64,000 bases of DNA from Nakazawaea peltata (lineage: Eukaryota; Ascomycota; Pichiomycetes; Alaninales; Pachysolenaceae), in assembly GCA_001599355.1 (NCBI GenBank), contig BCGQ01000001.1, positions 2,359,135-2,423,134 on the forward strand, written 5' to 3'. A program made the position numbers and the translations under genes. This document shows, piece after piece, positions 9,393-27,421 of this stretch. Below the pieces are notes generated by a model. The model was not told the DNA's origin and did not search any database. It was given only the letters and a program-made list of their open reading frames with translations. Each line of letters opens with the position of its first letter. Position 1 is the stretch's first letter.

Positions 9393-12341
9393 ATGACGAG
9401 AACGGGACCTAAAATTCAACCAAGTATCAGCAAATTCTTTTCAATTCAGAAGAAGGTTGAGAATGTGCCTGAGCGAGTTTCTCCACCTCCTGGACCGGCG
9501 CTTAAACGGACACGCAGACTGGCGCCCGCGCCTGTGATCGTAGCGCCATCCCCTTCCACTTCCCCTTCCCCTGAGATCATCCCTTCCCCAGAAGAAATCG
9601 ATACCTCTCTGGAAGTTATCAAGGCATTGAGCAACACGAAAACCCCAAAACGAAAGCAACAGTCATCCAGACCAGAATCCAACAAGAAATCAAAATCCCT
9701 GCTCGATCTGTTGACTCCTCTCGAGCAACAATTCGTCCAGTTGAAGAGAAATCATATGGATAAAGTCTTGCTGTACCAAGTTGGTTACAAATTCAAATTC
9801 TTTGGTGAAGATGCCGTTAAGGTTCATAAGATATTGAATATAATGTTGATCCCCGGTAGGATATCGGTGGCATTGGATGACCCTAATGATCAGGATCATG
9901 ACAGATTTGCCTACTGTTCCATCCCAGATGTGAGACTTCATATCCATCTTAAGAGATTATTAGATGCGGGATTCAAAGTAGGAGTGGTGGAGCAATCGGA
10001 GATTGCTGCCATTAAGAGCCAATCTGCATCTAAAAGTAAGATTTTCGAAAGAAAAATAACGAAAGTTTACACTACTGGAACTTACATTGATGGAAATGAT
10101 CTTGATTCTATTTATGAGAAGTCAGGCTCTCATTTAGTGGCTTTGAGAGAGTCCAAGAATTGTGAAATATCGGTTGTTGCCGTACAATTCACAAGTGGAG
10201 AGATAATTTACGACTCTTTTATAGACGACGGAGCTCGCAATGAGCTTGAAACCCGTCTTTTGCATGTCAGCCCTTCAGAATTTCTAATTATCGATGAAAT
10301 TGCCCCAGAGACTGAAAAATTCTTGAAATATTTCATATCCAAGACTAAATCCAATACTCGAATCAACAGAATTGTTTCCAAAGATTATTCATCATACTTA
10401 AACTCTTTGTCATCTTTCTTTGAAGATTGGGATTTCATCATGAGTTTAGATCATCTGGTCCAAACTATTATATTCGAGTTCATCACCTACTTAAAAGAGT
10501 TTGAACTTGACGCCATTTTCAACCAGACGATAAACTTTCATAAATTCAGCCAGAAAAATTACATGCTTTTAAATAATCATACATTGAGGAATCTTGAGAT
10601 ATTCGAGAATTCCACTAATCATGAGACTAAAGGTTCATTATTGTATTTGCTTGATCACACTCGTACTAAATTTGGTCATAGGACATTAAGGAGCTGGATT
10701 TCCCGGCCATTGATTAACGAAGAAGAGATATTAGAACGTCAAGACTCAATTGGATGTATAATCAGTAACTACAACCATAGAATGATCGAGATGGTGATAC
10801 AGTTCTTGAAGAATTGTCCAGATTTGGAAAGATATCTTAATAGAATCCATCTTAACAGATGTACAATGAAGGAAATATATCAAATATTGAAGAATTTCGA
10901 TAAGGTATTGACAATAGTTGATAATTTTGATAATGAGATAGAAGAATTCACTCCTTCATTGAAAGAGTTATTTCAAACATTGAAGGTATTGTGTAAAGAA
11001 TCTCAAGAAGTGACGGAATTATTTGAAATGATAAATCCTCTGAGCGCAAATGATGATAAACTTGAACCGAAGGAACAAAAACTAGGATATTTCAACAGCA
11101 GGTTCTTTGATAATGACAAGTTAGAAGTCGAAAGAGAACATATTAAAGAGATTGAATCTCTTTTACAGAAGGAATTACTTCGTGTTAGACAACTTCTTAG
11201 ACGGCCTCATTTGGAATACACAAAAAATAACAAAGAGAATTATTTGATCGAAGTAAGGAACAGTGAGGTAGGAAAGATCCCATCAGATTGGTTGAAATTC
11301 AATTCCACAAAAGCAGTAAGTAGATTCTTTACTCCAGAAGTGCTTAAATTGATGGAGAAATTCAGATATCATGAGGAATTATTAGTGGAGAAGATCGAAG
11401 AAGGATTTCATGCATTTATGGGTAGAGTAGATTCATTCTATGGAGTTTTGAGCAAGATCGTAAAGACCATTGGGAAATTTGACGCTTTAGTCTCGTTATC
11501 TGTGACTTCTGTCAATAATGTTTGTCCCGAGTTGTCTTCCAAACAATCGATTGAATTGGAAGCGGCTCGCAATCCTATAATTGAGATCTTAAACCCCGAC
11601 AAACTGACTATTGCGAATGATATTGTCATGAACCAAGATCAACGTATATTAGTGATTACTGGTCCTAATATGGGTGGTAAATCATCATTGATAAAGACGA
11701 TTTCGTTGATTGTGGTCATGACTCAGATTGGATGTTATGTTCCTGCAAGGAAAGCCAAATTGGGGATATTCAGTAATATATTTATTCGTATGGGATCCTC
11801 CGACAATATATTCAAGGGAGAGTCGACTTTCCAATTAGAAATGTCCGAATGTTTGAATATTTTAAAACAAAAGGACGATAAAAGTTTGATTCTTTTGGAT
11901 GAAATCGGACGTGGGACCTCTACAAATGATGGGTTTGCCATTGCGTTCTCCATTCTTCATTATTTGGCCACCACAACAGACGCTTTTATTCTTTTCATCA
12001 CCCATTTCAACAAACTCAAGAATTTCGAACGTAAATTCTCCTTCATCAAGAATTTCCACATGGACTATTTAGTGAACGGAAGGGAATTGACCTTCCTATA
12101 TAAATTTGTTCCCGGGTTCTGTGATAAAAGTTATGGGTTGAACGTTGCTCGATTGACTTCTATCCCCCAAGAAATCATTAACAAGCTGGAATTAGTTTCA
12201 AAAGAATACGAAAACGAATTTGAGACGAAGCTTGGTGTCAATTGGAGCTTAAAGGCAAGGGAATTACTAAGTAAAGCTATTAAAGAAGACGCTACTTCAG
12301 AGATACTGGATCAACTTTCAGATCTCGTTGACTACATATAA
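9393..12341 (+). CDS. MSH3: DNA mismatch-repair ATPase Msh3
   Basis: 982 residues, normal for Msh3. With Msh2 it forms MutS-beta, which recognises insertion/deletion loops. Residues 9-16 (QPSISKFF) are a PCNA-interacting PIP box. The mismatch-binding domain at about 120-160 has the Msh3-type YKFKFFGEDA rather than the FYE motif of Msh6. The core and clamp follow, then the ATPase with Walker A GPNMGGKS (757-764), Walker B LILLDEIGRGTS (about 833-844) and the helix-turn-helix tail. The start is the first ATG after the MCB and GT repeat. It is convergent with FPK1, with only 28 nt between stop codons. Confidence 0.97.
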   Translation: MTRTGPKIQPSISKFFSIQKKVENVPERVSPPPGPALKRTRRLAPAPVIVAPSPSTSPSPEIIPSPEEIDTSLEVIKALSNTKTPKRKQQSSRPESNKKSKSLLDLLTPLEQQFVQLKRNHMDKVLLYQVGYKFKFFGEDAVKVHKILNIMLIPGRISVALDDPNDQDHDRFAYCSIPDVRLHIHLKRLLDAGFKVGVVEQSEIAAIKSQSASKSKIFERKITKVYTTGTYIDGNDLDSIYEKSGSHLVALRESKNCEISVVAVQFTSGEIIYDSFIDDGARNELETRLLHVSPSEFLIIDEIAPETEKFLKYFISKTKSNTRINRIVSKDYSSYLNSLSSFFEDWDFIMSLDHLVQTIIFEFITYLKEFELDAIFNQTINFHKFSQKNYMLLNNHTLRNLEIFENSTNHETKGSLLYLLDHTRTKFGHRTLRSWISRPLINEEEILERQDSIGCIISNYNHRMIEMVIQFLKNCPDLERYLNRIHLNRCTMKEIYQILKNFDKVLTIVDNFDNEIEEFTPSLKELFQTLKVLCKESQEVTELFEMINPLSANDDKLEPKEQKLGYFNSRFFDNDKLEVEREHIKEIESLLQKELLRVRQLLRRPHLEYTKNNKENYLIEVRNSEVGKIPSDWLKFNSTKAVSRFFTPEVLKLMEKFRYHEELLVEKIEEGFHAFMGRVDSFYGVLSKIVKTIGKFDALVSLSVTSVNNVCPELSSKQSIELEAARNPIIEILNPDKLTIANDIVMNQDQRILVITGPNMGGKSSLIKTISLIVVMTQIGCYVPARKAKLGIFSNIFIRMGSSDNIFKGESTFQLEMSECLNILKQKDDKSLILLDEIGRGTSTNDGFAIAFSILHYLATTTDAFILFITHFNKLKNFERKFSFIKNFHMDYLVNGRELTFLYKFVPGFCDKSYGLNVARLTSIPQEIINKLELVSKEYENEFETKLGVNWSLKARELLSKAIKEDATSEILDQLSDLVDYI

Positions 12342-12369
12342 AATCATCAATCATAATTCTGTCTATACA

Positions 12370-15033
12370 TCACCTTTTCAAAAACTTTGTACTTTTGGAA
12401 CTTGTAGCCTTTTGTGCGTTACCTGTAGTACTACTACTTCTACTAGTGATAGTGTAAGCTATATCACCACCGAGTTCATGTTCTTCGGGAAGAAATTGTT
12501 CTTCGAAACCTTCATCATCGTCATGATGTAAAGTGATGGAATTGAAATTTTCAAATGGATCGCATTCACTACTCTTTATGGCAGTAACTTTCAGGGTGGA
12601 AACATCGGAACTAGTCACATTGAACCCATCATTGTGATCATCATCATCAACTTCAGAGTCCACTGGTGCTCTCTTGGAAAGAACAGGTATCATTGGAGGT
12701 CTTTGGTTCCTCAAAAGAGCCCATTGCGTATTCTTGAAGAAGACATGTTGTTTAATATCAGTTGCTCCAGACTTGGATCCGAGTCTTTTACCTTCGTCTT
12801 TAATTAAGAGCTTCTTAATGAGTGATTTACAATTTGAAGATATACTTTGAACGTTGCTATCGAAAGTGACATCTCTCTTAAGAATATTAGCAAAGGTTTG
12901 ATTTCTTGTAGATCCCTTGAAAGGTGTGGTTCCAAATAGCATTTCATACATGAAGATACCTAATGTCCACCAGTCAACAGCACTCGTATGACCTTTACCA
13001 CGAATCACTTCTGGAGCAATGTATTCTTCTGTTCCTACAAAAGAGTTAGTTCTGAAACCTTCGACACATGCTTTGGTATCCAAACCCATAACACCGTTAT
13101 TATTGACACTTTGAACCACCTCAGGTTTACGGATATTATCGGTACGTTTGGACAAATCAAAGTCCGATAACATTATATGCCCAGAAGCATGCAATAAGAT
13201 GTTCTCTGGTTTTAAATCACGGTAAATGTAGCCCATCAAATGCAAGTACTCGAACAGAGCAATAACTTCACTGGCATAGAATTTGGCATCCGCCTCTGGG
13301 ATACATTTAGATTTCCGAGTCTGTAAAGCGCGGAAGAATTCACCTCCCATACAATACTCGATACAAAGGTAAAGATAATCTTCCGATTGGAAAGAATGGT
13401 ATAAGGTGACGATGAAAGGATGATTGGAGGTTGCTAAAATCTCTTGTTCCAGAAGAGCTCTTTTAATCTTATTTCTTTCAATCATCTCTTTCTTCTTCAA
13501 TACTTTCATGGCGTATAATTTCTTGGACAGCTTCTCTCTTACAAGGTAGACTTTTCCAACGTCACCTCTTCCAAGAAGTTTGATCTTTTCAAAGCAAGTG
13601 GTATCTACCTCGACTTCAGAGACTTTTACTGAGCTCGAAGAGTATGATCTTCCACCTACGCTTCTATTTCTTGGTCTACTCGAGAGATTAAGTTCGCCGA
13701 TATGACTTTTCAAATGGTCGATATCGGTCGAGAGGGTCAGCGATGATTGAGAACCCTGAGATTTGGAAGCACTGCGAGGTTGAGGATGGTATAAATCCAG
13801 TTGGGGTTTCAGTGATTTCAGTTGAGTCTGATACGACAGTGGAGTACTACTTTTGAAAGCCAAAGGAGCCGAAGCTACTCTTCTTAATTTACGCTGGAAA
13901 GAAGAAGGCAGAGGCAGCAGGGGCGGCAGTTGCAGTGACAGTCCCAGACTTGAACTACCCTCCTCTTGAATTGGACTAATAACTTCCTTCTCGACCTCAT
14001 CATCCGGCTTAATAATGTTGATACTTATAGTAGAATTATTCACACTATAATCATGTTTTAATTTTATGTCATATTCATGTTCTTGGTCAGCTAAGTCGCA
14101 CTCGACTTGTTCTTTCGTCTCCAGATGAGGCGGTAACCCTTGGTGTTGGAAATAAGGCGATGAAGAGATAACAGGGGCTGTTTGAGTCAGAGACAGTGCT
14201 TTCGGGTTAGAAGAGGATCTCTTTCTAAAGAATTTCTTGATAGTCGAAGAAGACTGTACTTCTGACAGTACCGTAGATTGTGAAGGTCCCGACAGAGCCG
14301 CCTGCTGTAGAGGTACAGACTGAGTAGTTTTCTGTAATGGAACAGAACTTTCCTCTTTAATCGATTCTGGAATATCAAGAATCTCATCTAACACTGAACT
14401 CAGATCACCCATTGTTTCCTCCAGTCCTTCATCGCTGATATTCAGGTCAGTTTCGTCCTCTTTTTTGCTTGATTTGAAAAGTTGTTTAATCTTTGTGAAT
14501 CTATGCTTTGGCAGAACAGGACCTTCCTCAACGGTAGCAGGTGCATCTGGGATGGGTACAGAAGGAGACACGGCCGAACCCTTCTCAAATGGATTATCCT
14601 CCTCTATTGTTGGAGTGATCTCGAAATTGAAATCTTCATGCATATTATGTTCGTGACCAGTACCGTTGAATGAAAAGATGCTCTTCAATCTTGAATTGGA
14701 ACGAGTTCTACTTTGAGACCTTGATCTTATCAGTGGAGTCAGTGACTGTGGGGTCTCGGTGTCTAATTCTTGGGCCAGTGACTCATTAGTCAGACTGGAC
14801 TCAGGAAAGACAGAAGCCGTCAATGTATCCTGAGCAGGTGAGTCCGATGAGCCATTGTTAAGTGCCGATACCGATGACTGTGTACCTACAACCGACGATG
14901 AACTATCTTCGGTAACATCGACACCTTTGGTGGCAGCCTGTAAACTCTTTGTCAAGGGTACTGCCCCGGTGGGACTAGGGCCGGTATTGCCGAGCAATGA
15001 ATCAGATTTGGCAATAGTAGAAGTGATGTTCAT
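12370..15033 (-). CDS. AGC protein kinase of the Fpk1/Kin82 (NRC-2) family
   Basis: 887 residues. A long Ser-rich N-terminal half precedes an AGC kinase domain from about residue 478 to 775. Visible motifs are [10 protein letters not shown] (glycine loop), [22 protein letters not shown] in place of the usual DFG, an extended insert before the activation loop, [12 protein letters not shown], and [14 protein letters not shown]. The DFD and the insert between subdomains VII and VIII are typical of Fpk1/Kin82 and plant phototropin-like AGC kinases. Fpk1/Kin82 phosphorylate the Dnf1/Dnf2 phospholipid flippases at the plasma membrane. One gene here stands for the FPK1/KIN82 paralogue pair of S. cerevisiae, so no single symbol is given. 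Confidence 0.9.
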
Positions 15034-15394
15034 TTCGGGATGTAGATCCGAGGTTTGACTTCAAATTCCACACAACTCCAACTGTTTCTATCCTCTCTTT
15101 GAGATCTCAAGGCTATGTCAATCTGCCAAAGGGTAACTTTGCGTGTTTTTTTTCGATTTTTTGGATCTGAAGTTAAGCGCGGATAGCGAGAATGGGGCGT
15201 GGTGAAATGATAAATTGCTTAGGGAATTGGGGCTGTCTCCTCTAAAATTGGGGCTGTTCAAAGATAGTGTCTTCTTGTACAGGTTCCTTTGTCTCCAGAC
15301 TTGACTCTTCAGACTCCACTCTCTGTGTCCTCCCTCTCTCCTCTCTCCTCTCTCCTTCCTCTACATCTACATTCTATCTCCTGCTATCTATTAT
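15034..15394. other. Intergenic: FPK1-type kinase promoter and TRM112 3' flank
   Basis: A T-run at 15147-15160 and a CT-rich tract at 15330-15365 on the + strand are visible. No gene is seen. Confidence 0.55.
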
Positions 15395-15766
15395 TTATAC
15401 AAGATGTGGTGGTAAAAGGAAATTTGGAATCCCATCTTTGATATGGAAAATATGCTCACAATTCTGACACACCATCTTTCCTTGAACCAACTTGGTCTCC
15501 AACAACAATACATGTAAATCTCTCAATAACTGTTCTTCAATGATTTCTGGCTTTTGCAGTGGGATCGAGTTATTTCCCAAATCCTTAGCAACTTCTATTA
15601 CCGCCGACCAATCTAATCTTTCTAACATGCTAGTCATGAACTCAGCGTTAAATTCCTCTTCTTCTTGGATGAGTTCAACTTCCGTGTACTTCAATGGGAA
15701 TGACTTAGTTGTGCTGTTACATGTCTTAATAGGACATCTTACGAAATTTGTCGTCAAGAACTTCAT
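15395..15766 (-). CDS. TRM112: Trm112, activator subunit of methyltransferases
   Basis: 123 residues against 135 in S. cerevisiae. The zinc site has C11-x4-C16 near the N-terminus and C100-x2-C103 near the C-terminus, with the usual MKFLTTNFVRCP start and a DGIPNFLLP end that packs against partner enzymes. Trm112 stabilises and activates Trm9 and Trm11 (tRNA), Mtq2 (eRF1) and Bud23 (18S rRNA) methyltransferases, in cytosol and nucleus. The middle helical insert (30-80) is the variable part. The start is the first ATG and gives the canonical N-terminus. Confidence 0.96.
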   Translation of the reverse strand: MKFLTTNFVRCPIKTCNSTTKSFPLKYTEVELIQEEEEFNAEFMTSMLERLDWSAVIEVAKDLGNNSIPLQKPEIIEEQLLRDLHVLLLETKLVQGKMVCQNCEHIFHIKDGIPNFLLPPHLV

Positions 15767-16152
15767 TTTTCCGCTTCTTCGACTTCCTTAGGTATTACTT
15801 CTTGGTGTACTCTATACCTTCAAACGAACCTTTTGTGATATGAAAAGATTTAAGAGAATAAAATTTTTTTTTATTTTTTTACTTAGATGAGATTTGATCT
15901 TGAGGGCGATGAGGGAGGTAGGGACTGTAGGAGAGGTGGAGAAGGGGTGAAGTTGATGATCGGATGGATTTATTTTTAATGGACTAAAAAGTAGATTTCA
16001 TTAGTTATTGAGACATTGCATGTTTCTAGCTGTTATATCCTCTTCAAATCTCGATACCTACTTAAATAGCACCCCCTAACCTACCTATTCGCTATATCTT
16101 AACATGCATTTAATTCTATTATATACACCCCCCACCTATTAATTCCACCTAT
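15767..16152. other. Intergenic: TRM112 promoter and 3' flank of the next gene
   Basis: T/A-rich run at 15860-15885 and a purine-rich + strand block at 15900-15950, which is pyrimidine-rich in the TRM112 sense. No gene is seen. Confidence 0.55.
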
Positions 16153-17598
16153 CTATTTACAGTACGCAGCAATAAACCTCTGCTTTTCGTAGTCTTGGAA
16201 AATTTCCTCCAATTTGAAAATGCTATCCAATAACACCCACGTCTTATACACTTCGTGATCCAAATTCTTACAGTTCAACCAAATCAATGATACAGTTTCA
16301 TTGTCGATCACTTGCAATTCATAAGTGTACTTCAAATAAAGTCTTTGGTTCACCATGAACTTGGACTTGATCAATTGTAATATCCATTCGAAACATTTCC
16401 GATCTTTATTAACGTAACAAGATTTCAATACCAACTTGAGCAATTGTTTATCGAACAAAATGGCATAGTCAGATACGGTTTTCAAGTTATTGAACAGTCT
16501 CATGTGGGAGTTCTGAGAAGATGACTTTATGAATATTTTTAACTGTTTCCCTTGTTGAGTTTCCACAAATTGACTATTCAGTATCCATTTACGAAGTAAA
16601 AGCTGTAATTCACTGAACCGTTTCAATTTGAACAGCAGATTCATAAGCTCTAAACAGGTCTCTTTAGAGATTGCAAGTTGACTCGACGGACTCGATTCTT
16701 CCTTTGTAGATACGTTATCAAAGAACCTGCTTCTTAACCTATCCATATTAATTCTATTTTCAACCATCACTTTATTGATAGGAATGTCTGACTTTGGGAA
16801 AAGAACGTGTTTCTTTTGATCGGTAGTCAAGTTCAATTCAGAGTTGGCATTCACGATATGCAATAACTTGGTGAATTGATTCTGCAACTTCAAATCACCC
16901 ACCAGCGACAGCATGAATCTGAAAGTACTCTCATCAGTCTTACATAAATAAATGTTACTACTTCTGAATTTGTTCAAGTCACCAGGGATCTGAGTGATCG
17001 AATTGAACACTTGAACACTGATCGAATGTAAATCCAATTGGTTAAAATGCTTGATCAATGTCTCGTGGAGTAAGTAAGAAGGTGTTCTATCCAAGTCGAT
17101 CAAATACTTTATCACCTCTAGAAGTAATTGCTGCTTTTGTTCAAATGTCGAATCCTTGTTATATTTCAGGAAGATCCCATCCAATATGGAAACGTCCTCA
17201 CTCAGAAATTCTTTGGTAGTCCCTTGTTTGATATGAGTTTTGAAGTTCTCCAACTTGTCTTGCTCGAAATTCAAGAACTCTTTGTAATCGAAGAGTCTAT
17301 AATTGAAATATTTACTGGAATTCATCAATGGTTCAAGTAATTCTGATCTTTTCTGGAACACATCCCTCTGACTAAGCTTAGATCGTACGAGATAGTTCAA
17401 GGTGAGTCTGTTGATTAAGAGGTAGCTTGCTAGCTCTCTATTACAATTTCGGTACTCAAGAGTGGTGCCAATAGATTTCTCAAGACCAGAAATAGTCCTG
17501 GGAAACCTCATACTGGACATGAACCTAGCACCCCACATCACCGTCCTCGACTTAACTCTGGTTCCAAGTCTTCTCATCGAGGTCTTTTGAATTTTCAA
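16153..17598 (-). CDS. Probable mitochondrial protein, helical (possible gene-expression factor)
   Basis: 481 residues, not recognised. The first 35 residues are rich in R and K and almost free of acids (MKIQKTSMRRLGTRVKSRTV), with an RFMSSMRF segment that looks like a mitochondrial presequence and cleavage region. The rest is predicted mostly alpha-helical, with tandem helix-pair character reminiscent of degenerate PPR-like translational activators of yeast mitochondria, but no repeat can be aligned confidently by eye. A membrane segment is absent. It diverges from the DUF866 gene across 528 nt. Mitochondrial location is a reasonable inference; any specific function would be a guess. Confidence 0.7.
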   Translation of the reverse strand: MKIQKTSMRRLGTRVKSRTVMWGARFMSSMRFPRTISGLEKSIGTTLEYRNCNRELASYLLINRLTLNYLVRSKLSQRDVFQKRSELLEPLMNSSKYFNYRLFDYKEFLNFEQDKLENFKTHIKQGTTKEFLSEDVSILDGIFLKYNKDSTFEQKQQLLLEVIKYLIDLDRTPSYLLHETLIKHFNQLDLHSISVQVFNSITQIPGDLNKFRSSNIYLCKTDESTFRFMLSLVGDLKLQNQFTKLLHIVNANSELNLTTDQKKHVLFPKSDIPINKVMVENRINMDRLRSRFFDNVSTKEESSPSSQLAISKETCLELMNLLFKLKRFSELQLLLRKWILNSQFVETQQGKQLKIFIKSSSQNSHMRLFNNLKTVSDYAILFDKQLLKLVLKSCYVNKDRKCFEWILQLIKSKFMVNQRLYLKYTYELQVIDNETVSLIWLNCKNLDHEVYKTWVLLDSIFKLEEIFQDYEKQRFIAAYCK

Positions 17599-18126
17599 GA
17601 AATTTTTTCCCTCTTTCCTATTTGGGTGAATGTGTGAGGATTAGTGAGAAATTAGGGAGCATTTTGGGGGTGGAAGGAGATGGTAGGGCCACTATTGGAG
17701 GGGTAGGTAATGACACTGAAGAGATATGTCCAACAGCAAGACATTGACACCCAATACTGAATCACAGACTAAAACCGTCGGTAATATTCATTTTCCCTAC
17801 ATTTTTTCCATTGCATCTTCTGGCATAGAATGTGTCATCGTGCGTCTTAACCTGCGTAAGCTAAGAGAATACCAGGGATCAAAAGATCCGGATGTCCTGG
17901 TTCAAAAAGGTAAAAAAACAGCTCAAAATAACCGCATCTACTTCTATAAATAGCCACTACTACTCCGGACTCATTTCGGCCGAACTTTGTATACTCCTCT
18001 CGCCCTAACAGCGATTTCGTGACTCATTAAATCTCCACTGTACGGCCCACACACAAAAAAAATCATATATAAGGAGCCGCACAGCTCTAAGTAAATCTTT
18101 TATTAGGTCCAAGATCATTATCAATC
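17599..18126. other. Divergent promoter: mitochondrial-type gene / DUF866 gene
   Basis: TATA-like TATAAATA at 17945-17952 and TATATAAG at 18066-18073, the latter 53 nt before the DUF866 start. A purine-rich + strand block at 17640-17705 faces the minus-strand gene. A 75-codon frame at 17726 is not conserved-looking and is not called. Confidence 0.5.
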
Positions 18127-18612
18127 ATGGGTTACAAATTAGTAATGAAGGCTGACTTCAATAACATCAGCGCTTTAAGCGTTGAAGACTCTCCAGCTAG
18201 TCCATTCGAATACGCTTTCGAAATAGAATGCATCAAATGTAGAGAAGTACATCCAAATCACGTGACTATAAACGTCCACGAACAACATGAAATTACAGGA
18301 TCAAGAGGAGAGCTGAGTTTGGTATTTAGATGCCGTAACTGTAAGATGGAGCATTCTGCCACTATCACAAAACCATCTTCTGCATTTCTAACACCGGAAG
18401 ATGAAGATGGAAAGACCATCTTGAATATCGATGCCAGAGGGATTTATTTCTTGAATTTCTTTGCTGAACAAGGCTCTTTCAAGGCCAAAGGCACCGGAGA
18501 TACCGTTTTCACCGAGGTAGATTTGAGTGAAGGTGAATGGTACGATTATGATGAGGATCTGGGTCATGAAGTATCCATTACCAACGTAGAATTTTCCATT
18601 GAGAGATCATAA
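18127..18612 (+). CDS. CXXC zinc-binding protein, DUF866 family (YCR090C / CZIB homologue)
   Basis: 161 residues, the family length. Two CxxC knuckles, C35-x2-C38 (ECIKC) and C69-x2-C72 (RCRNC), form the single zinc site of the DUF866 fold. SPFEYAFEIEC and the C-terminal half with GEWYDYDEDLG match the family. The human member (CZIB, C1orf123) is a soluble protein with a zinc-dependent fold and no settled biochemical role; yeast YCR090C is likewise uncharacterised. It ends nine bases before the convergent hydrolase-phosphatase gene. Confidence 0.92.
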   Translation: MGYKLVMKADFNNISALSVEDSPASPFEYAFEIECIKCREVHPNHVTINVHEQHEITGSRGELSLVFRCRNCKMEHSATITKPSSAFLTPEDEDGKTILNIDARGIYFLNFFAEQGSFKAKGTGDTVFTEVDLSEGEWYDYDEDLGHEVSITNVEFSIERS

Positions 18613-18621
18613 TAAATTATA

Positions 18622-20454
18622 TTAACTATCATTTTTATACCTTACGTACAATCCATCGATGAAATGGGGATGTTTAATTCCAGGTTCTCTAGCTTTCTTG
18701 AACGCCGAGATGCTATCATCTACGGACCATCCGAGTTTCTCCACCAAATAACAACAGATTAAGTATCCAGTTCTATTGAACCCATAGTGACAATGTACGG
18801 CGATTTTCTGAGTCTGCTCTTCTTCGGTCCGATTCTCAAGAATTTCATCCACAAGAGTGACAAAGTTACGGATATTTTGCGAATCAGGTATGAATTTCGA
18901 TACCGTAGGCATTTTATGGTACTTAATTCTTTCGAACTCTTGAGGATTATAACTTGGTAAATCGGAACTGATATCAATGATCAGCATAACTTGAGGGTTT
19001 TGTTTCTCGAATGCAGATGGAGTATGTTCCAGATCGGACCCACGAAGCGTCTTCATAGATAATAAACTTGAAACATCATTAGTTGATGGATTTTTAATCT
19101 CTTTCGATAACCCTGTAAGACTTTTCCACTTCAATTCATTTTTGACTCCCCATTTATCTCCACTAATTGTAGCTCTTATTTGAAGACACCACCCAAGATT
19201 GATATTCAAATCGGGCCTTGATTCCACAAATTTATAAATTAATCCACTCAATGTCTCTGGTCTATCTATCATTACAGCATGCCCACAATGATTGAGTGAT
19301 TCTAACGTTGACCCAGCCAATTTCAGTGCAATATCCGTGGAGAATCTAGATGGTGTTACAGTATCGTTTTTACCACAGATAATGAAGATATTCTCATTTG
19401 AAACCTTCGACGGAATATTCATCAACTCAGCCTCTGTACACAGCTTGAAACCTTTAATATATTTTAGTACCACATTTGAATCTACATCTAAATTCCATCT
19501 TAATTGCTTTAACCTCTTGAAATTAGTCGATCCAAAAGTTTGTCTAGACACAGACCTAGAAGTCAATCCTCCTATTCTATCCCAGATCCTCATTATATCG
19601 AACAATTGAGGGAAGTTTGTGAGTAAACCAAGTTTCTTCTTTGTCAAATCAGCTTGGATTTTAGGAGGTGAAATTAATACAGTCGATGCTATAACTCCCT
19701 TATCCAATGAATTAATGATCTTCATACTTAAATGTGTCCCCATTGAATGTCCTATTAACACGATTTGTCTACCTTGTCTCTTGGATTCCAAGATCTTACA
19801 TAATAACAGAGCAATTGAATCGGTTTCCCAAAACTTGTCGTCGGTCAGAAGTAAAGAATCGACCATTTTATCTCTTAATACAGAATCCTGCTGTATCAAA
19901 CTAAGTCCATGCTTAATTTTTCTCATAGATGAGTTACCAAATCCAGGTAAATCGACAGCAAACACATCAGCACACTGACTTAAGATGGCTATTGATTGCT
20001 CAAATTGTGATGTCTGACCTCCCATTCCATGTATAAACACAATGACAGGAGTAGAATCGATTTTCCCCAAGATCTCATTCTTCTGTTTAACACTGAGAGT
20101 CGTCGATTTGGCCACATGAATTCTCAAAGGATGAGGAATGTTCAACGTATTCAAATAAACGTTGTCAAATTTCTCAATGGACGAGTATTTGGCTACTAAA
20201 GAACAATCATTTGGTTCTAAATCCAAAATCAACTTCTCAAACTGCGAATTATACGGCCCGCCATGTATAAATTTAGAGATGACCACCTTTGAAAAAGCCA
20301 CAAATTTGGACAAAAACGAGCTCAGATTCTTCTCTTCGAGCGCTTGTAAATACAGTAAATTTTCGAAACTTAAAGCTCCTCCGCCTAAGTATTTGGTAGA
20401 GGAGGAGATGATTTCCTCCTCCTCTTGGAGCTCTTTCGCAAGGTTTTTATCCAT
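18622..20454 (-). CDS. Alpha/beta-hydrolase fused to an RNA-5'-triphosphatase-like Cys phosphatase
   Basis: 610 residues in one uninterrupted frame. Residues about 105-410 are an alpha/beta-hydrolase: oxyanion-hole HG at 142-143, nucleophile elbow GHSMG with S237, acid D364 (GKNDTVTP) and H392 (CGHAVMI). Residues about 485-608 are a cysteine phosphatase with HCHYGFNRTG (C555, R561). Around the P-loop it resembles the metazoan capping-enzyme/PIR1 RNA 5'-phosphatase group more than ordinary dual-specificity phosphatases: HCxxGFNRTG, then LICxxLVEKxxWS, then PGI and a final RY. All catalytic residues of both domains are present, so both may be active. Substrates are unknown; a lipid or ester for the first domain and an RNA 5' end or phosphoinositide for the second are guesses. 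No signal peptide or membrane segment is clear. Confidence 0.88.
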   Translation of the reverse strand: MDKNLAKELQEEEEIISSSTKYLGGGALSFENLLYLQALEEKNLSSFLSKFVAFSKVVISKFIHGGPYNSQFEKLILDLEPNDCSLVAKYSSIEKFDNVYLNTLNIPHPLRIHVAKSTTLSVKQKNEILGKIDSTPVIVFIHGMGGQTSQFEQSIAILSQCADVFAVDLPGFGNSSMRKIKHGLSLIQQDSVLRDKMVDSLLLTDDKFWETDSIALLLCKILESKRQGRQIVLIGHSMGTHLSMKIINSLDKGVIASTVLISPPKIQADLTKKKLGLLTNFPQLFDIMRIWDRIGGLTSRSVSRQTFGSTNFKRLKQLRWNLDVDSNVVLKYIKGFKLCTEAELMNIPSKVSNENIFIICGKNDTVTPSRFSTDIALKLAGSTLESLNHCGHAVMIDRPETLSGLIYKFVESRPDLNINLGWCLQIRATISGDKWGVKNELKWKSLTGLSKEIKNPSTNDVSSLLSMKTLRGSDLEHTPSAFEKQNPQVMLIIDISSDLPSYNPQEFERIKYHKMPTVSKFIPDSQNIRNFVTLVDEILENRTEEEQTQKIAVHCHYGFNRTGYLICCYLVEKLGWSVDDSISAFKKAREPGIKHPHFIDGLYVRYKNDS

Positions 20455-21012
20455 TGGTTGGAAATATCTGACCCTTGATGACTCTTTGGGATTTTTGAGT
20501 TTAATTTTTGTTGATTTTTGTTGAGCGATGCGTGGGCGATAAGGGATAACGTGCGTGGATAAGAAAAAGTAGGGAAAGTATGAAGGAAAATGTAGAGGAA
20601 ATGTGGAAATGTAAGGGAAAATATAAGGAAATACAAGGGGAACTATAAGGGAAAATGTAGCAAAATAAAGGGGTGATAATTAAGGGATAAGTAGGGGGTA
20701 ATAGTTAAGGGGCGGAAAGAAAGAGATAATTAAGGGAGTGCTACACAATTTAAAATCTGATGATAACATCGAAATAAGACATTGATGAACATACCGACTC
20801 TATTTGAATCTAATCATATGAGACCAGATTGATTAATTATATCTTATCTACACCTCTCTAAGTCATTACTGTTCATAAGTATTATAACTCCATACATATC
20901 CTATGTAATATTAGTATTTCAACAATCTCAATCATGACATTTAGTTACTTCATCTAACATATTGCCATGAAAAAATATTTAATTGATGATATTTTTGAGT
21001 GAATTTCATTAT
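20455..21012. other. Intergenic: hydrolase-phosphatase promoter and ALD 3' flank
   Basis: From about 20535 to 20740 the + strand is an imperfect purine-rich series of TAAGGG, AAGGGATAA and GGAAAT-like words, which is CT-rich in the sense of the minus-strand gene. No gene is supported. Confidence 0.55.
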
Positions 21013-22593
21013 CTAAGCAGTTGGAACGTACAACTTGGCTCTGACAACCTTAACTTGAGTATAGTTATCGAACAGTTCCAAACCCATCTCTCTACCAATA
21101 CCGGATTCTTTGTAACCACCGAATGGGACAGCGTGGTCTAAGTCACCGTAAGTGTTGATCCAGACTGAACCAGCTTCCAATCTGTCAGAGACAGCAATGG
21201 CCTTGTTCAAGTCCTTGGTGTGGATACCGGCGGCTAAACCGTACTCGGAATCATTAGCAGATTCGACAACTTCATCGATGGTCTTGAACTTTTGAATGGC
21301 AGCGACTGGACCGAAGATCTCTTCTCTGACAATCTTCATGTCTTTAGTACAGTCGTAGAACAAAGTTGGGGTGACAAAGTAACCCTTCTCACCGATTCTC
21401 TTGGCTCCAGAAAGAACCTTAGCACCTTCTTCTTGACCGGCCTTGATGTAGTCCAAGACAGTTTGGAATTGATCTGGGGTAGCTTGAGCACCTTGGAAAA
21501 CACCTTCTTCGAATGGGTTACCAACCTTCAATTTCTCCATCTCAACCTTTAACTTCTCCAATACTTGGTCGTAGATACCTTCTTGGATGAAAATTCTGGA
21601 TCCGGCGAAACAGATCTCACCACCGTTGAAGAAAATACCCTTGATTAAACTGTCAACGGCAACATCGATATCGGCATCGTCAAAGACAATGTTTGGAGAC
21701 TTACCACCCAACTCCAAAGTGACCTTCTTCAAGTTGGATTGAGCAGCACCTACCATGACATCACGACCGATACCAGTCGATCCGGTGAAGGCAATCTTCT
21801 TAATCTTTGGGTGGTTGATGATGGCGTTACCACACTTTCTTCCGGAACCTGGAATAATGTTAACAACACCTGCTGGAATACCGGCTTCCTTACACAACTT
21901 AGCGGCGTACAAGTTGGACAATGGAGTAGCACTGGCTGGCTTCAAGACAACGGTGTTACCGGTGGCTAAAGCTGGTCCAATCTTCCAAGCCCACATAAGC
22001 AATGGGAAGTTCCATGGAGTAATTTGACCACAAACACCCAATGGCTCTCTCTTGGTGTATGTCATGTGGTCTGGATCAGTGTTGATAGTTCTACCGTCCA
22101 ATTTGTCGGCGTAACCAGCACAGTACTTAAGGTACTTGACGACCAAGCCAACATCATAACGAGAACAGAACAAAGATTTACCGTTGTCCAAAGACTCAAT
22201 TCTGGCCAAGGTCTCACCATTCTTCTCAATCAATTCAGCTAATCTGTATAATTTCTCACCTCTTTCGTATGGCTTGACGTTCTTCCAGGTCTTGAAAGCC
22301 TCGGAAGCGGCTTCGACAGCAGCATCGACATCTTGATCATCGGCCATCAGAAGGTCACACAAATGTTGTTCATCGATTGGGGATGTAACGGCAAAAGTTT
22401 TACCAGACTTAGAGGCAACAAATTCGTTGTTGATGAACAAACCGGTTGGTTGTTCGTAAGTTTCGTTGACAATTGGGAAGGTCAACTTAGCACTTAATGA
22501 AGACATGTTTCGTATAATATGAATTGTCGAAATGAATGATCTCTTAAAATTAACAGACGTTCTTAAACTCATATTGAAATAAAATCGTTGCAA
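21013..22593 (-). CDS. Aldehyde dehydrogenase, NAD(P)-dependent (yeast ALD family)
   Basis: 526 residues from the first ATG. It is a complete ALDH with N195 (PWNF), the Rossmann GSTGIG (271-276), general base E294 (LELGGKSP) and catalytic C328 in GGEICFAGSR. It oxidises acetaldehyde and other aldehydes to acids; the full-length form with its basic, acid-free leader resembles mitochondrial Ald4/Ald5 types. Three in-frame starts exist: M1 (22593), M8 (22572) and M30 (22506). A TATA-like box lies only 22 nt before M1, so M8 is the likelier start of a mitochondrial form and M30 would give a cytosolic form. It lies next to the amine oxidase, whose aldehyde products it could oxidise. Confidence 0.95.
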   Translation of the reverse strand: MQRFYFNMSLRTSVNFKRSFISTIHIIRNMSSLSAKLTFPIVNETYEQPTGLFINNEFVASKSGKTFAVTSPIDEQHLCDLLMADDQDVDAAVEAASEAFKTWKNVKPYERGEKLYRLAELIEKNGETLARIESLDNGKSLFCSRYDVGLVVKYLKYCAGYADKLDGRTINTDPDHMTYTKREPLGVCGQITPWNFPLLMWAWKIGPALATGNTVVLKPASATPLSNLYAAKLCKEAGIPAGVVNIIPGSGRKCGNAIINHPKIKKIAFTGSTGIGRDVMVGAAQSNLKKVTLELGGKSPNIVFDDADIDVAVDSLIKGIFFNGGEICFAGSRIFIQEGIYDQVLEKLKVEMEKLKVGNPFEEGVFQGAQATPDQFQTVLDYIKAGQEEGAKVLSGAKRIGEKGYFVTPTLFYDCTKDMKIVREEIFGPVAAIQKFKTIDEVVESANDSEYGLAAGIHTKDLNKAIAVSDRLEAGSVWINTYGDLDHAVPFGGYKESGIGREMGLELFDNYTQVKVVRAKLYVPTA

Positions 22594-26341: not shown

Positions 26342-27421
26342 CTATTCTTGAGATTCGGTAGATTCTTGTTTGGTTTCCTCGTTTGAGATTTCAGTGACCT
26401 CTGGGGTAACTTCCTCTACAGGAACAATTTCTACATTGATTTCTTCAGACTTTGAAGATTCGGTCTTTGGGGTTGATTTACCTTCTGGTTTTGGACCTTT
26501 GTGGTGCTCTGCCTTTGGGCCTTTGTGGTGCTCTGGTCTTGGACCCTTACCCTCTGGTCTATGATGCTCTGGTCTTGGACCTTTACCTTCTGGTCTATGA
26601 TGCTCTGGTCTTGGACCTCTGTGATCACCTTTGAAATCAGGTCTCTTCTCACTGTCAGAGTTCTCATTTTCGGTGTTTTCATCTTCAACAGCTTCAGGCT
26701 TAGAATCAGCAGGAGACTCAGATTCCTCAGGCTTTGGACGTCTGTGATGCTTACCCTTGAATTCTGGTCTGTGGTCCTCAAAGTCTTCGTCATCAGAATC
26801 CCACTCTGGTCTTCCGTGTGGAGATGGACTTCTGTCTGGTCTACCCTCTGGTCTTCCCTCAGGTCTACCATGTGGAGATGGACGTCTGTCTGGTCTTCCG
26901 TGTGGAGATGGACTTCTGTCTGGTCTACCCTCTGGTCTTCCCTCAGGTCTACCATGTGGAGATGGACGTCTGTCTGGTCTTCCCTCTGGTCTTCCATGTG
27001 GAGATGGACGTCTGTGGTCAGGTCTACCTCTGAAATCAGGTCTACCTCTATGACCAGGCTTTGGACCTCTGTGGAAATCTTCATCATCAGATTCATCATC
27101 AGAATCAAACTCTGGCTTGAATCTTCCATGTCCCTTTCCCTTGTGTCTGAATGGGTGGTCTCTATCAGCACTTGGGTCAAAGTAAGCTGGCTCATTATGA
27201 CCCATTCCATGTCCATATGGAGCTACATCTCCGGAATGGAAATGAGGAGGTGGACCTGGTGGACCAAAAGTTTGGTGGCATACAGCCATTACAGCCAACA
27301 TAGCCAAGGCACCGATACCAAAAATCTTCTTCTTGGATAATGCTGGGGCTTCAGTAGCAGGCAGTCCCTCTGACTGAGGAACAGCAACATATTGTGGTAA
27401 AATAGACTTCTCAGATGACAT
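26342..27421 (-). CDS. Repeat-rich single-pass membrane protein (G/R/P/H-rich and acidic), unknown
   Basis: 359 residues, not recognised. Residues 1-32 are soluble, KKK at 30-32 precedes a hydrophobic segment at about 33-48, and the rest is hydrophilic and low-complexity. That part has a His/Pro/Gly-rich stretch, then HGRPEGRPDRRPSP-type repeats (about 145-205), acidic patches (DSDDESDDEDF), HHRPEGKGPRPE repeats (about 270-300) and a final acidic tail rich in E, T and S. The basic flank before the membrane segment suggests a type II anchor with the repeats outside or in the lumen, but this is inference. The abundant RPSP sites are Pro-directed. DNA-level repeats are almost identical, so the length is probably polymorphic. 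Long open frames on the other strand are by-products of the repeats. Confidence 0.7.
   Translation of the reverse strand: MSSEKSILPQYVAVPQSEGLPATEAPALSKKKIFGIGALAMLAVMAVCHQTFGPPGPPPHFHSGDVAPYGHGMGHNEPAYFDPSADRDHPFRHKGKGHGRFKPEFDSDDESDDEDFHRGPKPGHRGRPDFRGRPDHRRPSPHGRPEGRPDRRPSPHGRPEGRPEGRPDRSPSPHGRPDRRPSPHGRPEGRPEGRPDRSPSPHGRPEWDSDDEDFEDHRPEFKGKHHRRPKPEESESPADSKPEAVEDENTENENSDSEKRPDFKGDHRGPRPEHHRPEGKGPRPEHHRPEGKGPRPEHHKGPKAEHHKGPKPEGKSTPKTESSKSEEINVEIVPVEEVTPEVTEISNEETKQESTESQE
26531..26602. repeat. 36-nt coding tandem repeat, two copies plus a partial third
   Basis: Copies at 26531-26566 and 26567-26602 differ at two positions; a partial copy follows from 26603. Each encodes a 12-residue GPRPEHHRPEGK-type unit. 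Confidence 0.9.
26811..26978. repeat. 84-nt coding tandem repeat, two identical copies
   Basis: Copies at 26811-26894 and 26895-26978 are identical base for base and encode 28 residues each, built of smaller HGRP(D/E) modules. Flanking partial copies continue to about 27016. Perfect identity points to recent duplication or ongoing homogenisation. Confidence 0.93.

What the first reader, a model, noticed from the sequence alone, without database searches (positions are those of the whole stretch)
18622..20454. Alpha/beta-hydrolase fused to a capping-enzyme-like RNA 5'-phosphatase in a yeast
One uninterrupted 610-residue frame carries two complete active sites: hydrolase S237/D364/H392 and phosphatase C555/R561. 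The phosphatase half is not a generic dual-specificity enzyme: HCxxGFNRTG, LICxxLVEKxxWS and the PGI...RY ending follow the metazoan capping-enzyme/PIR1 RNA 5'-triphosphatase group. Budding yeasts cap RNA with the unrelated metal-dependent Cet1 enzyme, so a Cys-type RNA phosphatase domain here would have another job, such as trimming uncapped 5' ends or acting on a different phosphate ester. The fusion suggests both activities act on one molecule or in one response. I cannot tell whether the fusion has already been catalogued in other fungi.
Basis: partly seen in the sequence, partly recalled or inferred. Interest (0 to 1): 0.72.

Follow-up and report, generated by a model that had tools for sequence, protein, structure and literature searches.

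The report
Yeast hydrolase fused to RNA-phosphatase-like domain
One yeast gene encodes two enzymes in a single protein, a serine hydrolase joined to a phosphatase whose nearest relatives with solved structures trim phosphates from RNA ends, but what either half acts on is untested.

Summary
In detail: window 18622-20454, minus strand, is one uninterrupted 610-codon frame with an alpha/beta hydrolase (S237/D364/H392) and a Cys phosphatase (C555/R561). Nearest solved relatives of the phosphatase are capping-enzyme RNA triphosphatase (5e-19), baculovirus RNA phosphatase and PIR1/DUSP11 (about 1e-15); next is DUSP23 (3e-8). It scores 100.5 bits against a four-member RNA-triphosphatase profile (members left out: 86-118; this yeast's Cdc14: 51.6) and lacks an acid at the WPD place. 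The genome also has a Cet1-type triphosphatase, a guanylyltransferase and three RAI1-family genes, so capping does not need the fusion. Against an RNA substrate: of 23 positions invariant in four RNA triphosphatases it keeps 16 (Cdc14: 13); the D-L-T-N/Y-T patch and P-loop TH are lost. The clade is supported; an RNA substrate is plausible, not shown. Other fungi could not be surveyed; both structure models failed. CUG probably reads as alanine here, changing eight residues, none catalytic. New variant of known kinds, moderate interest.

The parts
18622..20454 (-). Fusion gene, 610 codons plus stop, one open frame
19252..20043 (-). Alpha/beta hydrolase domain, residues 138-401 (Abhydrolase_6)
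19744..19746 (-). Putative nucleophile Ser237 (GHSMG)
   Evidence: role inferred from the alpha/beta hydrolase motif
19363..19365 (-). Putative acid Asp364 (GKNDT)
   Evidence: alignment; role inferred
19279..19281 (-). Putative base His392 (CGHAV)
   Evidence: alignment; role inferred
18646..19005 (-). Cys-type phosphatase domain, residues 484-603 (DSPc; nearest RNGTT/PIR1/BVP)
18973..18975 (-). Asp494, aligned with mouse RNGTT Asp66 and invariant in the 4 RNA triphosphatases compared
   Evidence: one search prints fusion numbers one too high
18790..18792 (-). Catalytic Cys555 of HCHYGFNRTG
   Evidence: role inferred
18772..18774 (-). P-loop Arg561
   Evidence: role inferred
20455..21012 (-). 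Upstream region between the fusion ATG and the stop of the ALDH-like gene; degenerate purine-rich repeats, 4 AGGGG and 2 TAAGGGAT words (on the + strand) between 20540 and 20712
   Evidence: function not shown

Best explanation
A single bifunctional protein. The N-terminal half is an alpha/beta hydrolase with a Ser-Asp-His triad that cleaves an ester or thioester of unknown identity (inferred). The C-terminal half is a Cys phosphatase of the RNA 5'-triphosphatase/PIR1 clade (supported by sequence): Cys555 attacks a terminal phosphate and Arg561 and the P-loop hold it (inferred from the superfamily). There is no Asp or Glu at the WPD general-acid position, so the favoured substrate is a phosphoanhydride, most likely the 5'-tri- or diphosphate of uncapped RNA, reduced to 5'-monophosphate for Xrn-type exonucleases as described for DUSP11 (inferred). 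It works beside, not in place of, the Cet1-type capping triphosphatase. The fusion places both activities on one molecule or in one place (inferred).
For: Domain hits above cut-offs. PDB ranking RNGTT, baculovirus phosphatase, PIR1, then a gap of about 7 orders of magnitude to DUSP23. Converse search: mouse RNGTT finds this gene first in its own genome (9.6e-20, 37%), the Cdc14-like gene second (5.6e-10). Left-out profiles: fusion 100.5 bits RNA-triphosphatase against 31.6 yeast-DSP. Tree: fusion plus 4 RNA triphosphatases on one side of a branch from the four yeast DSPs kept, support 76/95. No acidic residue at the place where own Cdc14 has DD (that this is the WPD acid of Cdc14 is recalled). 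Papers: RNGTT (MCE1), baculovirus phosphatase and PIR1 lack the WPD motif (PMC9038691, passages); DUSP11 converts 5'-PPP viral RNA to 5'-P for XRN (PMC7808613, passages). Genome has mRNA_triPase 1.6e-50 and mRNA_cap_enzyme 4.5e-50.
Against: Of 23 columns invariant in 4 RNA triphosphatases 7 are changed, including the two Thr of the T-N/Y-T patch and P-loop TH; Cdc14 keeps 13, Msg5 keeps 6. An Asp (524) lies just after Pro523, as in PIR1, so an acid nearby is not excluded without a structure. The first tree, with the long-branched Tep1, did not resolve the fusion against Cdc14; the order inside the clade is unresolved (5.7/36). The genome already has three RAI1-family genes; a DXO can also act on 5'-PPP viral RNA. 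Structure models failed (pLDDT 34.5 and 44.8). PDB matches of the hydrolase half are weak and of mixed substrates. Coding signal dips at the linker.
Confidence: 0.5

Rival explanations
1. A bifunctional small-molecule or lipid enzyme, in the manner of soluble epoxide hydrolase: the hydrolase removes an acyl group and the phosphatase removes a phosphate from the same or a related metabolite; the RNA-phosphatase ancestry was kept but the substrate changed.
For: Loss of the T-N/Y-T patch and P-loop TH that all 4 compared RNA triphosphatases keep. Precedent: sEH joins an epoxide hydrolase to a lipid phosphatase (PMC11676941, PMC4548251, abstracts in search listing).
Against: The phosphatase halves are unrelated (HAD type in sEH, recalled) and the epoxide-hydrolase nucleophile is Asp (recalled), here Ser. 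Profile still favours RNA triphosphatases by 69 bits. No general acid for a phosphomonoester was seen at the WPD place.
Confidence: 0.27
2. [quoted passage not shown] RNA is not its substrate.
For: WPD motif absent, as in Siw14 and plant PFA-DSP1 (PMC9038691, passages); the domain lacks some RNA-triphosphatase hallmarks.
Against: Siw14 itself matches only at E = 0.2, far behind RNGTT, PIR1 and the baculovirus enzyme.
Confidence: 0.13
3. Two genes misread as one: the phosphatase is made separately, for instance from an internal start near Met467, or the joined frame is an assembly or annotation accident in this strain.
For: Codon signal dips at residues 416-450; a Met at 467 precedes the phosphatase domain.
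Against: No stop or frameshift in 610 codons; signal is strong again at 451-482, before the phosphatase.
Confidence: 0.1

Closest known systems
PIR1/DUSP11 and baculovirus RNA 5'-phosphatase (stand-alone Cys-type RNA phosphatases)
   Same: HCxxGxNRTG P-loop (the PIR1 crystal form has Ser for Cys), Asp494, Lys514, Arg589, no acid at the WPD place; 33% identity over about 120 residues
   Different: Fused to a hydrolase; T-N/Y-T patch and P-loop TH lost; in a yeast that has the Cet1-type triphosphatase
Triphosphatase domain of the metazoan/plant capping enzyme (RNGTT; algal-looking L019)
   Same: Best PDB match, 5.2e-19; GFNRTG, LVEKxxWS, PGI ... RY shared with mouse RNGTT
   Different: No guanylyltransferase match in the protein; that is a separate Ceg1-type gene here
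Soluble epoxide hydrolase (EPHX2)
   Same: A hydrolase and a phosphatase in one protein
   Different: Opposite order (phosphatase N-terminal, abstracts); phosphatase of another fold and Asp nucleophile (recalled)
Cdc14
   Same: Closest of the five other phosphatases of this genome compared (28% identity, 42.4 bits)
   Different: Has DD at the WPD place and GLGRTG in the P-loop; 51.6 bits to the RNA-triphosphatase profile against 100.5

Membership tests
Cys-type RNA 5'-triphosphatase (RNGTT/PIR1/BVP) | Nearest relatives by sequence | tested here: met
Cys-type RNA 5'-triphosphatase (RNGTT/PIR1/BVP) | HCxxGxNRTG P-loop with Cys and Arg | tested here: met
   HCHYGFNRTG
Cys-type RNA 5'-triphosphatase (RNGTT/PIR1/BVP) | No Asp/Glu general acid in the WPD loop | tested here: met
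   by alignment only, no usable structure; feature of the family from PMC9038691 (passages)
Cys-type RNA 5'-triphosphatase (RNGTT/PIR1/BVP) | D-L-T-N/Y-T patch and P-loop T-H, shared by the 4 members compared | tested here: not met
   DISSD and HY here; 16 of 23 invariant columns kept. That these define the family is my inference from 4 sequences
Cys-type RNA 5'-triphosphatase (RNGTT/PIR1/BVP) | Hydrolyses pppRNA or ppRNA | not testable with these tools
   needs an assay
Metazoan/plant capping enzyme | Guanylyltransferase domain in the same protein | tested here: not met
Generic yeast dual-specificity phosphatase | Closer to a Msg5/Yvh1/Pps1/Cdc14 profile than to RNA triphosphatases | tested here: not met
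   31.6 against 100.5 bits. A DSPc hit alone does not tell: mouse RNGTT, baculovirus phosphatase and PIR1 also pass the DSPc cut-off, the algal one falls below it
Serine alpha/beta hydrolase | Fold family match with Ser-Asp-His in order | tested here: met
   by sequence only
Soluble epoxide hydrolase | Asp nucleophile in the hydrolase (recalled) | tested here: not met
   Ser237 in GHSMG

The most novel reading that the evidence does not exclude
A bifunctional RNA 5'-end enzyme in which the hydrolase removes an acyl (ester or thioester) group from a non-canonical 5' cap or RNA-bound metabolite and the PIR1-like domain then strips the exposed phosphates, giving this CUG-Ala yeast a second, non-Cet1, non-DXO route for 5'-end clearing.
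Probability: 0.07. Interest if true: 0.85.

Novelty: new variant of a known kind. Interest (0 to 1): 0.45.

Why it matters
Fungi are taken to use the metal-dependent tunnel-type RNA triphosphatase, while animals and plants use the Cys type (PMC4791841, passages). A Cys-type relative in a yeast that keeps the tunnel enzyme, tied to a hydrolase, would point to a second RNA 5'-end (or other phosphoanhydride) pathway in fungi and give a simple handle on what PIR1-like enzymes do outside animals. If the substrate turned out to be a metabolite, it would be a parallel to soluble epoxide hydrolase built from unrelated parts.

Tried and rejected
Capping triphosphatase of this yeast: rejected as the likely main role, since Cet1-type (1.6e-50) and guanylyltransferase (4.5e-50) genes are present. 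Generic DSP: rejected on profile scores. Tree with Tep1: did not separate the fusion from Cdc14; I then dropped Tep1 (end branch 3.5) and added an algal-looking capping enzyme, which gave 76/95; both are reported. Of 11 DSPc matches in the genome the comparisons used the fusion and five genes (Cdc14-, Msg5-, Yvh1-, Pps1- and Tep1-like); one further match lies in the same Pps1-like gene, and the PTP1-like L011 and three weak matches were not used. Stress-element promoter idea: 4 AGGGG and 2 TAAGGGAT words lie upstream, but the window as a whole has no excess of either word, so not used.

Led nowhere: phages and plasmids by tblastn, no match; viral contigs with the whole protein (7 stretches, none confirmed) and with a P-loop DNA pattern (0); viral contigs with alignment A1 (8 stretches, 1 confirmed, L019); genome contigs with the hydrolase half (20 stretches, none confirmed) and with A1 (10 stretches, none confirmed). 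These scans start from short exact peptide patterns and miss most distant relatives. AlphaFold on the whole protein alone (pLDDT 34.5) and on the phosphatase part with one relative (pLDDT 44.8): too poor, no fold search run. Paper searches on the fusion or on Cys-type RNA triphosphatases in fungi listed no paper whose title or abstract start describes it (1, 0, 2, 20 of 25, and 2 papers listed); I read listings only, except passages of PMC2904801. The library is open-licence only, so absence is weak evidence.

A first form of this report was sent back once for checking, and a second did not fit the form's schema; the content of this one is the checked text.

Full report
What is there. Window 18622-20454, minus strand, is one open frame of 610 codons from an ATG. 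It stops 9 bases from the stop of a convergent gene (18127-18612, PF05907, 7.1e-50) and starts 558 bases from the stop of an aldehyde dehydrogenase gene (21013-22593, 1.7e-179), so it has room for its own promoter. No GTATGT, GTAAGT or TACTAAC occurs in the frame; GTACGT and GTATGA occur once each. A codon score trained on 13 other window genes favours frame 0 over the five other frames in 9 of 10 segments; the exception is residues 416-450. The scores are modest: around or below the low end of the training genes, which were scored on themselves.

Genetic code. Ten window proteins were scanned against Pfam with CUG as Leu, Ala and Ser. Over 15 matches (three overlapping rows left out, all three also highest with Ala) my sums by hand are 2926.6 bits (Leu), 2978.3 (Ala) and 2955.0 (Ser); Ala is highest in 12 of 15 (Ser in one, Leu in two). 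A tRNA pattern gave 22 places in the genome, no more than its control (23); ARAGORN was run on 12 of the 22 and found 2 tRNA genes. One has anticodon CAG (ARAGORN names it Leu from the anticodon), is 74 bases long, too short for the long variable arm of Leu or Ser tRNAs, and, read by eye, has G3-U70, the alanine identity mark (recalled); the minimum-energy fold did not give the cloverleaf. The other is a Leu tRNA with anticodon AAG. CUG-Ala yeasts are Pachysolen, Nakazawaea and Peterozyma (PMC5951914, passages). The protein therefore probably has Ala at eight CUG places; both domains score slightly better so.

Hydrolase half. Abhydrolase_6 matches residues 138-401 at 9.3e-18, and Abhydrolase_1, Hydrolase_4 and DUF900 also pass their cut-offs. 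GHSMG, GKNDT and CGHAV come in order. The PDB matches are weak (9.3e-8 at best) and of mixed kinds, so no substrate can be named. A whole-protein search of its own genome finds no other gene matching this half at 1e-3; the family search finds 9 Abhydrolase_6 matches (a lower bound), this one the best.

Phosphatase half. Against 177,635 PDB sequences the nine best matches are all capping enzyme, baculovirus phosphatase or PIR1 (5.2e-19 to 1.7e-15); DUSP23 follows at 2.9e-8 and Cdc14 at 5.1e-7. Mouse RNGTT searched against the whole genome finds this gene first (9.6e-20) and the Cdc14-like gene second (5.6e-10). A profile of four RNA triphosphatases gives the fusion 100.5 bits; its own members, each left out, get 86.1 to 118.5; yeast Cdc14 51.6, Tep1 27.6, Msg5 19.3, Yvh1 15.6, Pps1 7.2. 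Names of the yeast phosphatases are mine, from sequence likeness. The DSPc hit does not argue otherwise: mouse RNGTT, baculovirus phosphatase and PIR1 pass that cut-off and the algal-looking one does not. A second family, PF22785 (DSP-type phosphatase of polymorphic toxin systems), also passes its cut-off narrowly (29.1 against 27), as it does for RNGTT and the baculovirus enzyme.

Limits of the likeness. Of 23 columns invariant in the four RNA triphosphatases, the fusion keeps 16, Cdc14 13, Msg5 6 (fusion numbers printed there are one too high). Kept by the fusion but not by Cdc14: D494, K514, N560, F585. Changed in the fusion: the Leu and both Thr of the D-L-T-N/Y-T patch, a Gly in the loop before Pro523, P-loop T and H, and a Tyr replaced by Phe. 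The first tree left the fusion unresolved against Cdc14 and Tep1; without Tep1 and with L019 the five group together at 76/95, inner order unresolved. So clade membership is likely, and substrate change inside the clade is quite possible.

How it may work. RNGTT (MCE1), the baculovirus enzyme and PIR1 are listed among Cys phosphatases without a WPD motif (PMC9038691, passages). The fusion has no acidic residue there by alignment, while Cdc14 has two; an Asp does follow Pro523, as in PIR1. I infer a phosphoanhydride substrate, most likely RNA 5'-ppp or 5'-pp. DUSP11 turns 5'-PPP viral RNA into 5'-P RNA open to XRN (PMC7808613, passages). Capping is provided by Cet1- and Ceg1-type genes, and three RAI1-family genes exist, so the fusion would act on a separate pool or under a separate condition. 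The hydrolase's role is unknown; a shared substrate or shared place is inference.

What could not be done. The tools hold no relatives of this genome (stated), so conservation of the fusion in fungi is untested; phage, plasmid, viral and prokaryote collections gave one confirmed locus, an algal-looking capping enzyme. Both structure predictions were too poor to use. No paper describing the fusion appeared in the listings, but protein databases were not available and may already list it. Fungi are described as having the separate metal-dependent enzyme (PMC4791841, passages; PMC2904801, passages).

Verdict. A real two-domain gene, read correctly in its main features; the phosphatase clade is supported, the RNA substrate is plausible but open. 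New variant of known kinds; interest 0.45.

Noticed in passing
L030:1469-1542 (own genome, contig C4) and window genes: CUG appears to be read as Ala: Pfam scores are highest with code 26 in 12 of 15 families, and a CAG-anticodon tRNA of 74 bases with G3-U70 (by eye) is present. Window proteins read with the standard code have wrong residues at CUG.
   Followed up: yes
L015, L016, L017/L018 (own genome): Three RAI1/DXO-family genes: one Rai1-like (6.1e-113) and two more distant (9.7e-32; 6.0e-29). S. cerevisiae has two (recalled).
   Followed up: partly
window 9393-18612: MutS homologue (MSH3-like), a KIN82-like kinase and a PF05907 gene in a row, like MSH3-KIN82-YCR090C on S. cerevisiae chromosome III (gene names and order recalled), with a 481-aa frame without Pfam match (16153-17598) between.
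   Followed up: no
window 20540-20712: Degenerate purine-rich repeats upstream of the fusion with 4 AGGGG and 2 TAAGGGAT words, like stress and post-diauxic elements (recalled); the window as a whole shows no excess.
   Followed up: partly
L019:2108-4183 (IMG/VR contig): A contig filed as viral has a frame with a Cys-type RNA-triphosphatase domain followed by what looks by eye like a guanylyltransferase (no family search of that part), on GC-rich DNA; perhaps green-algal DNA or a virus that took the gene.
   Followed up: partly
window 26342-27421, minus strand: 359-aa frame rich in HGRPEGRPD-type repeats with no Pfam match at 0.001.
   Followed up: no
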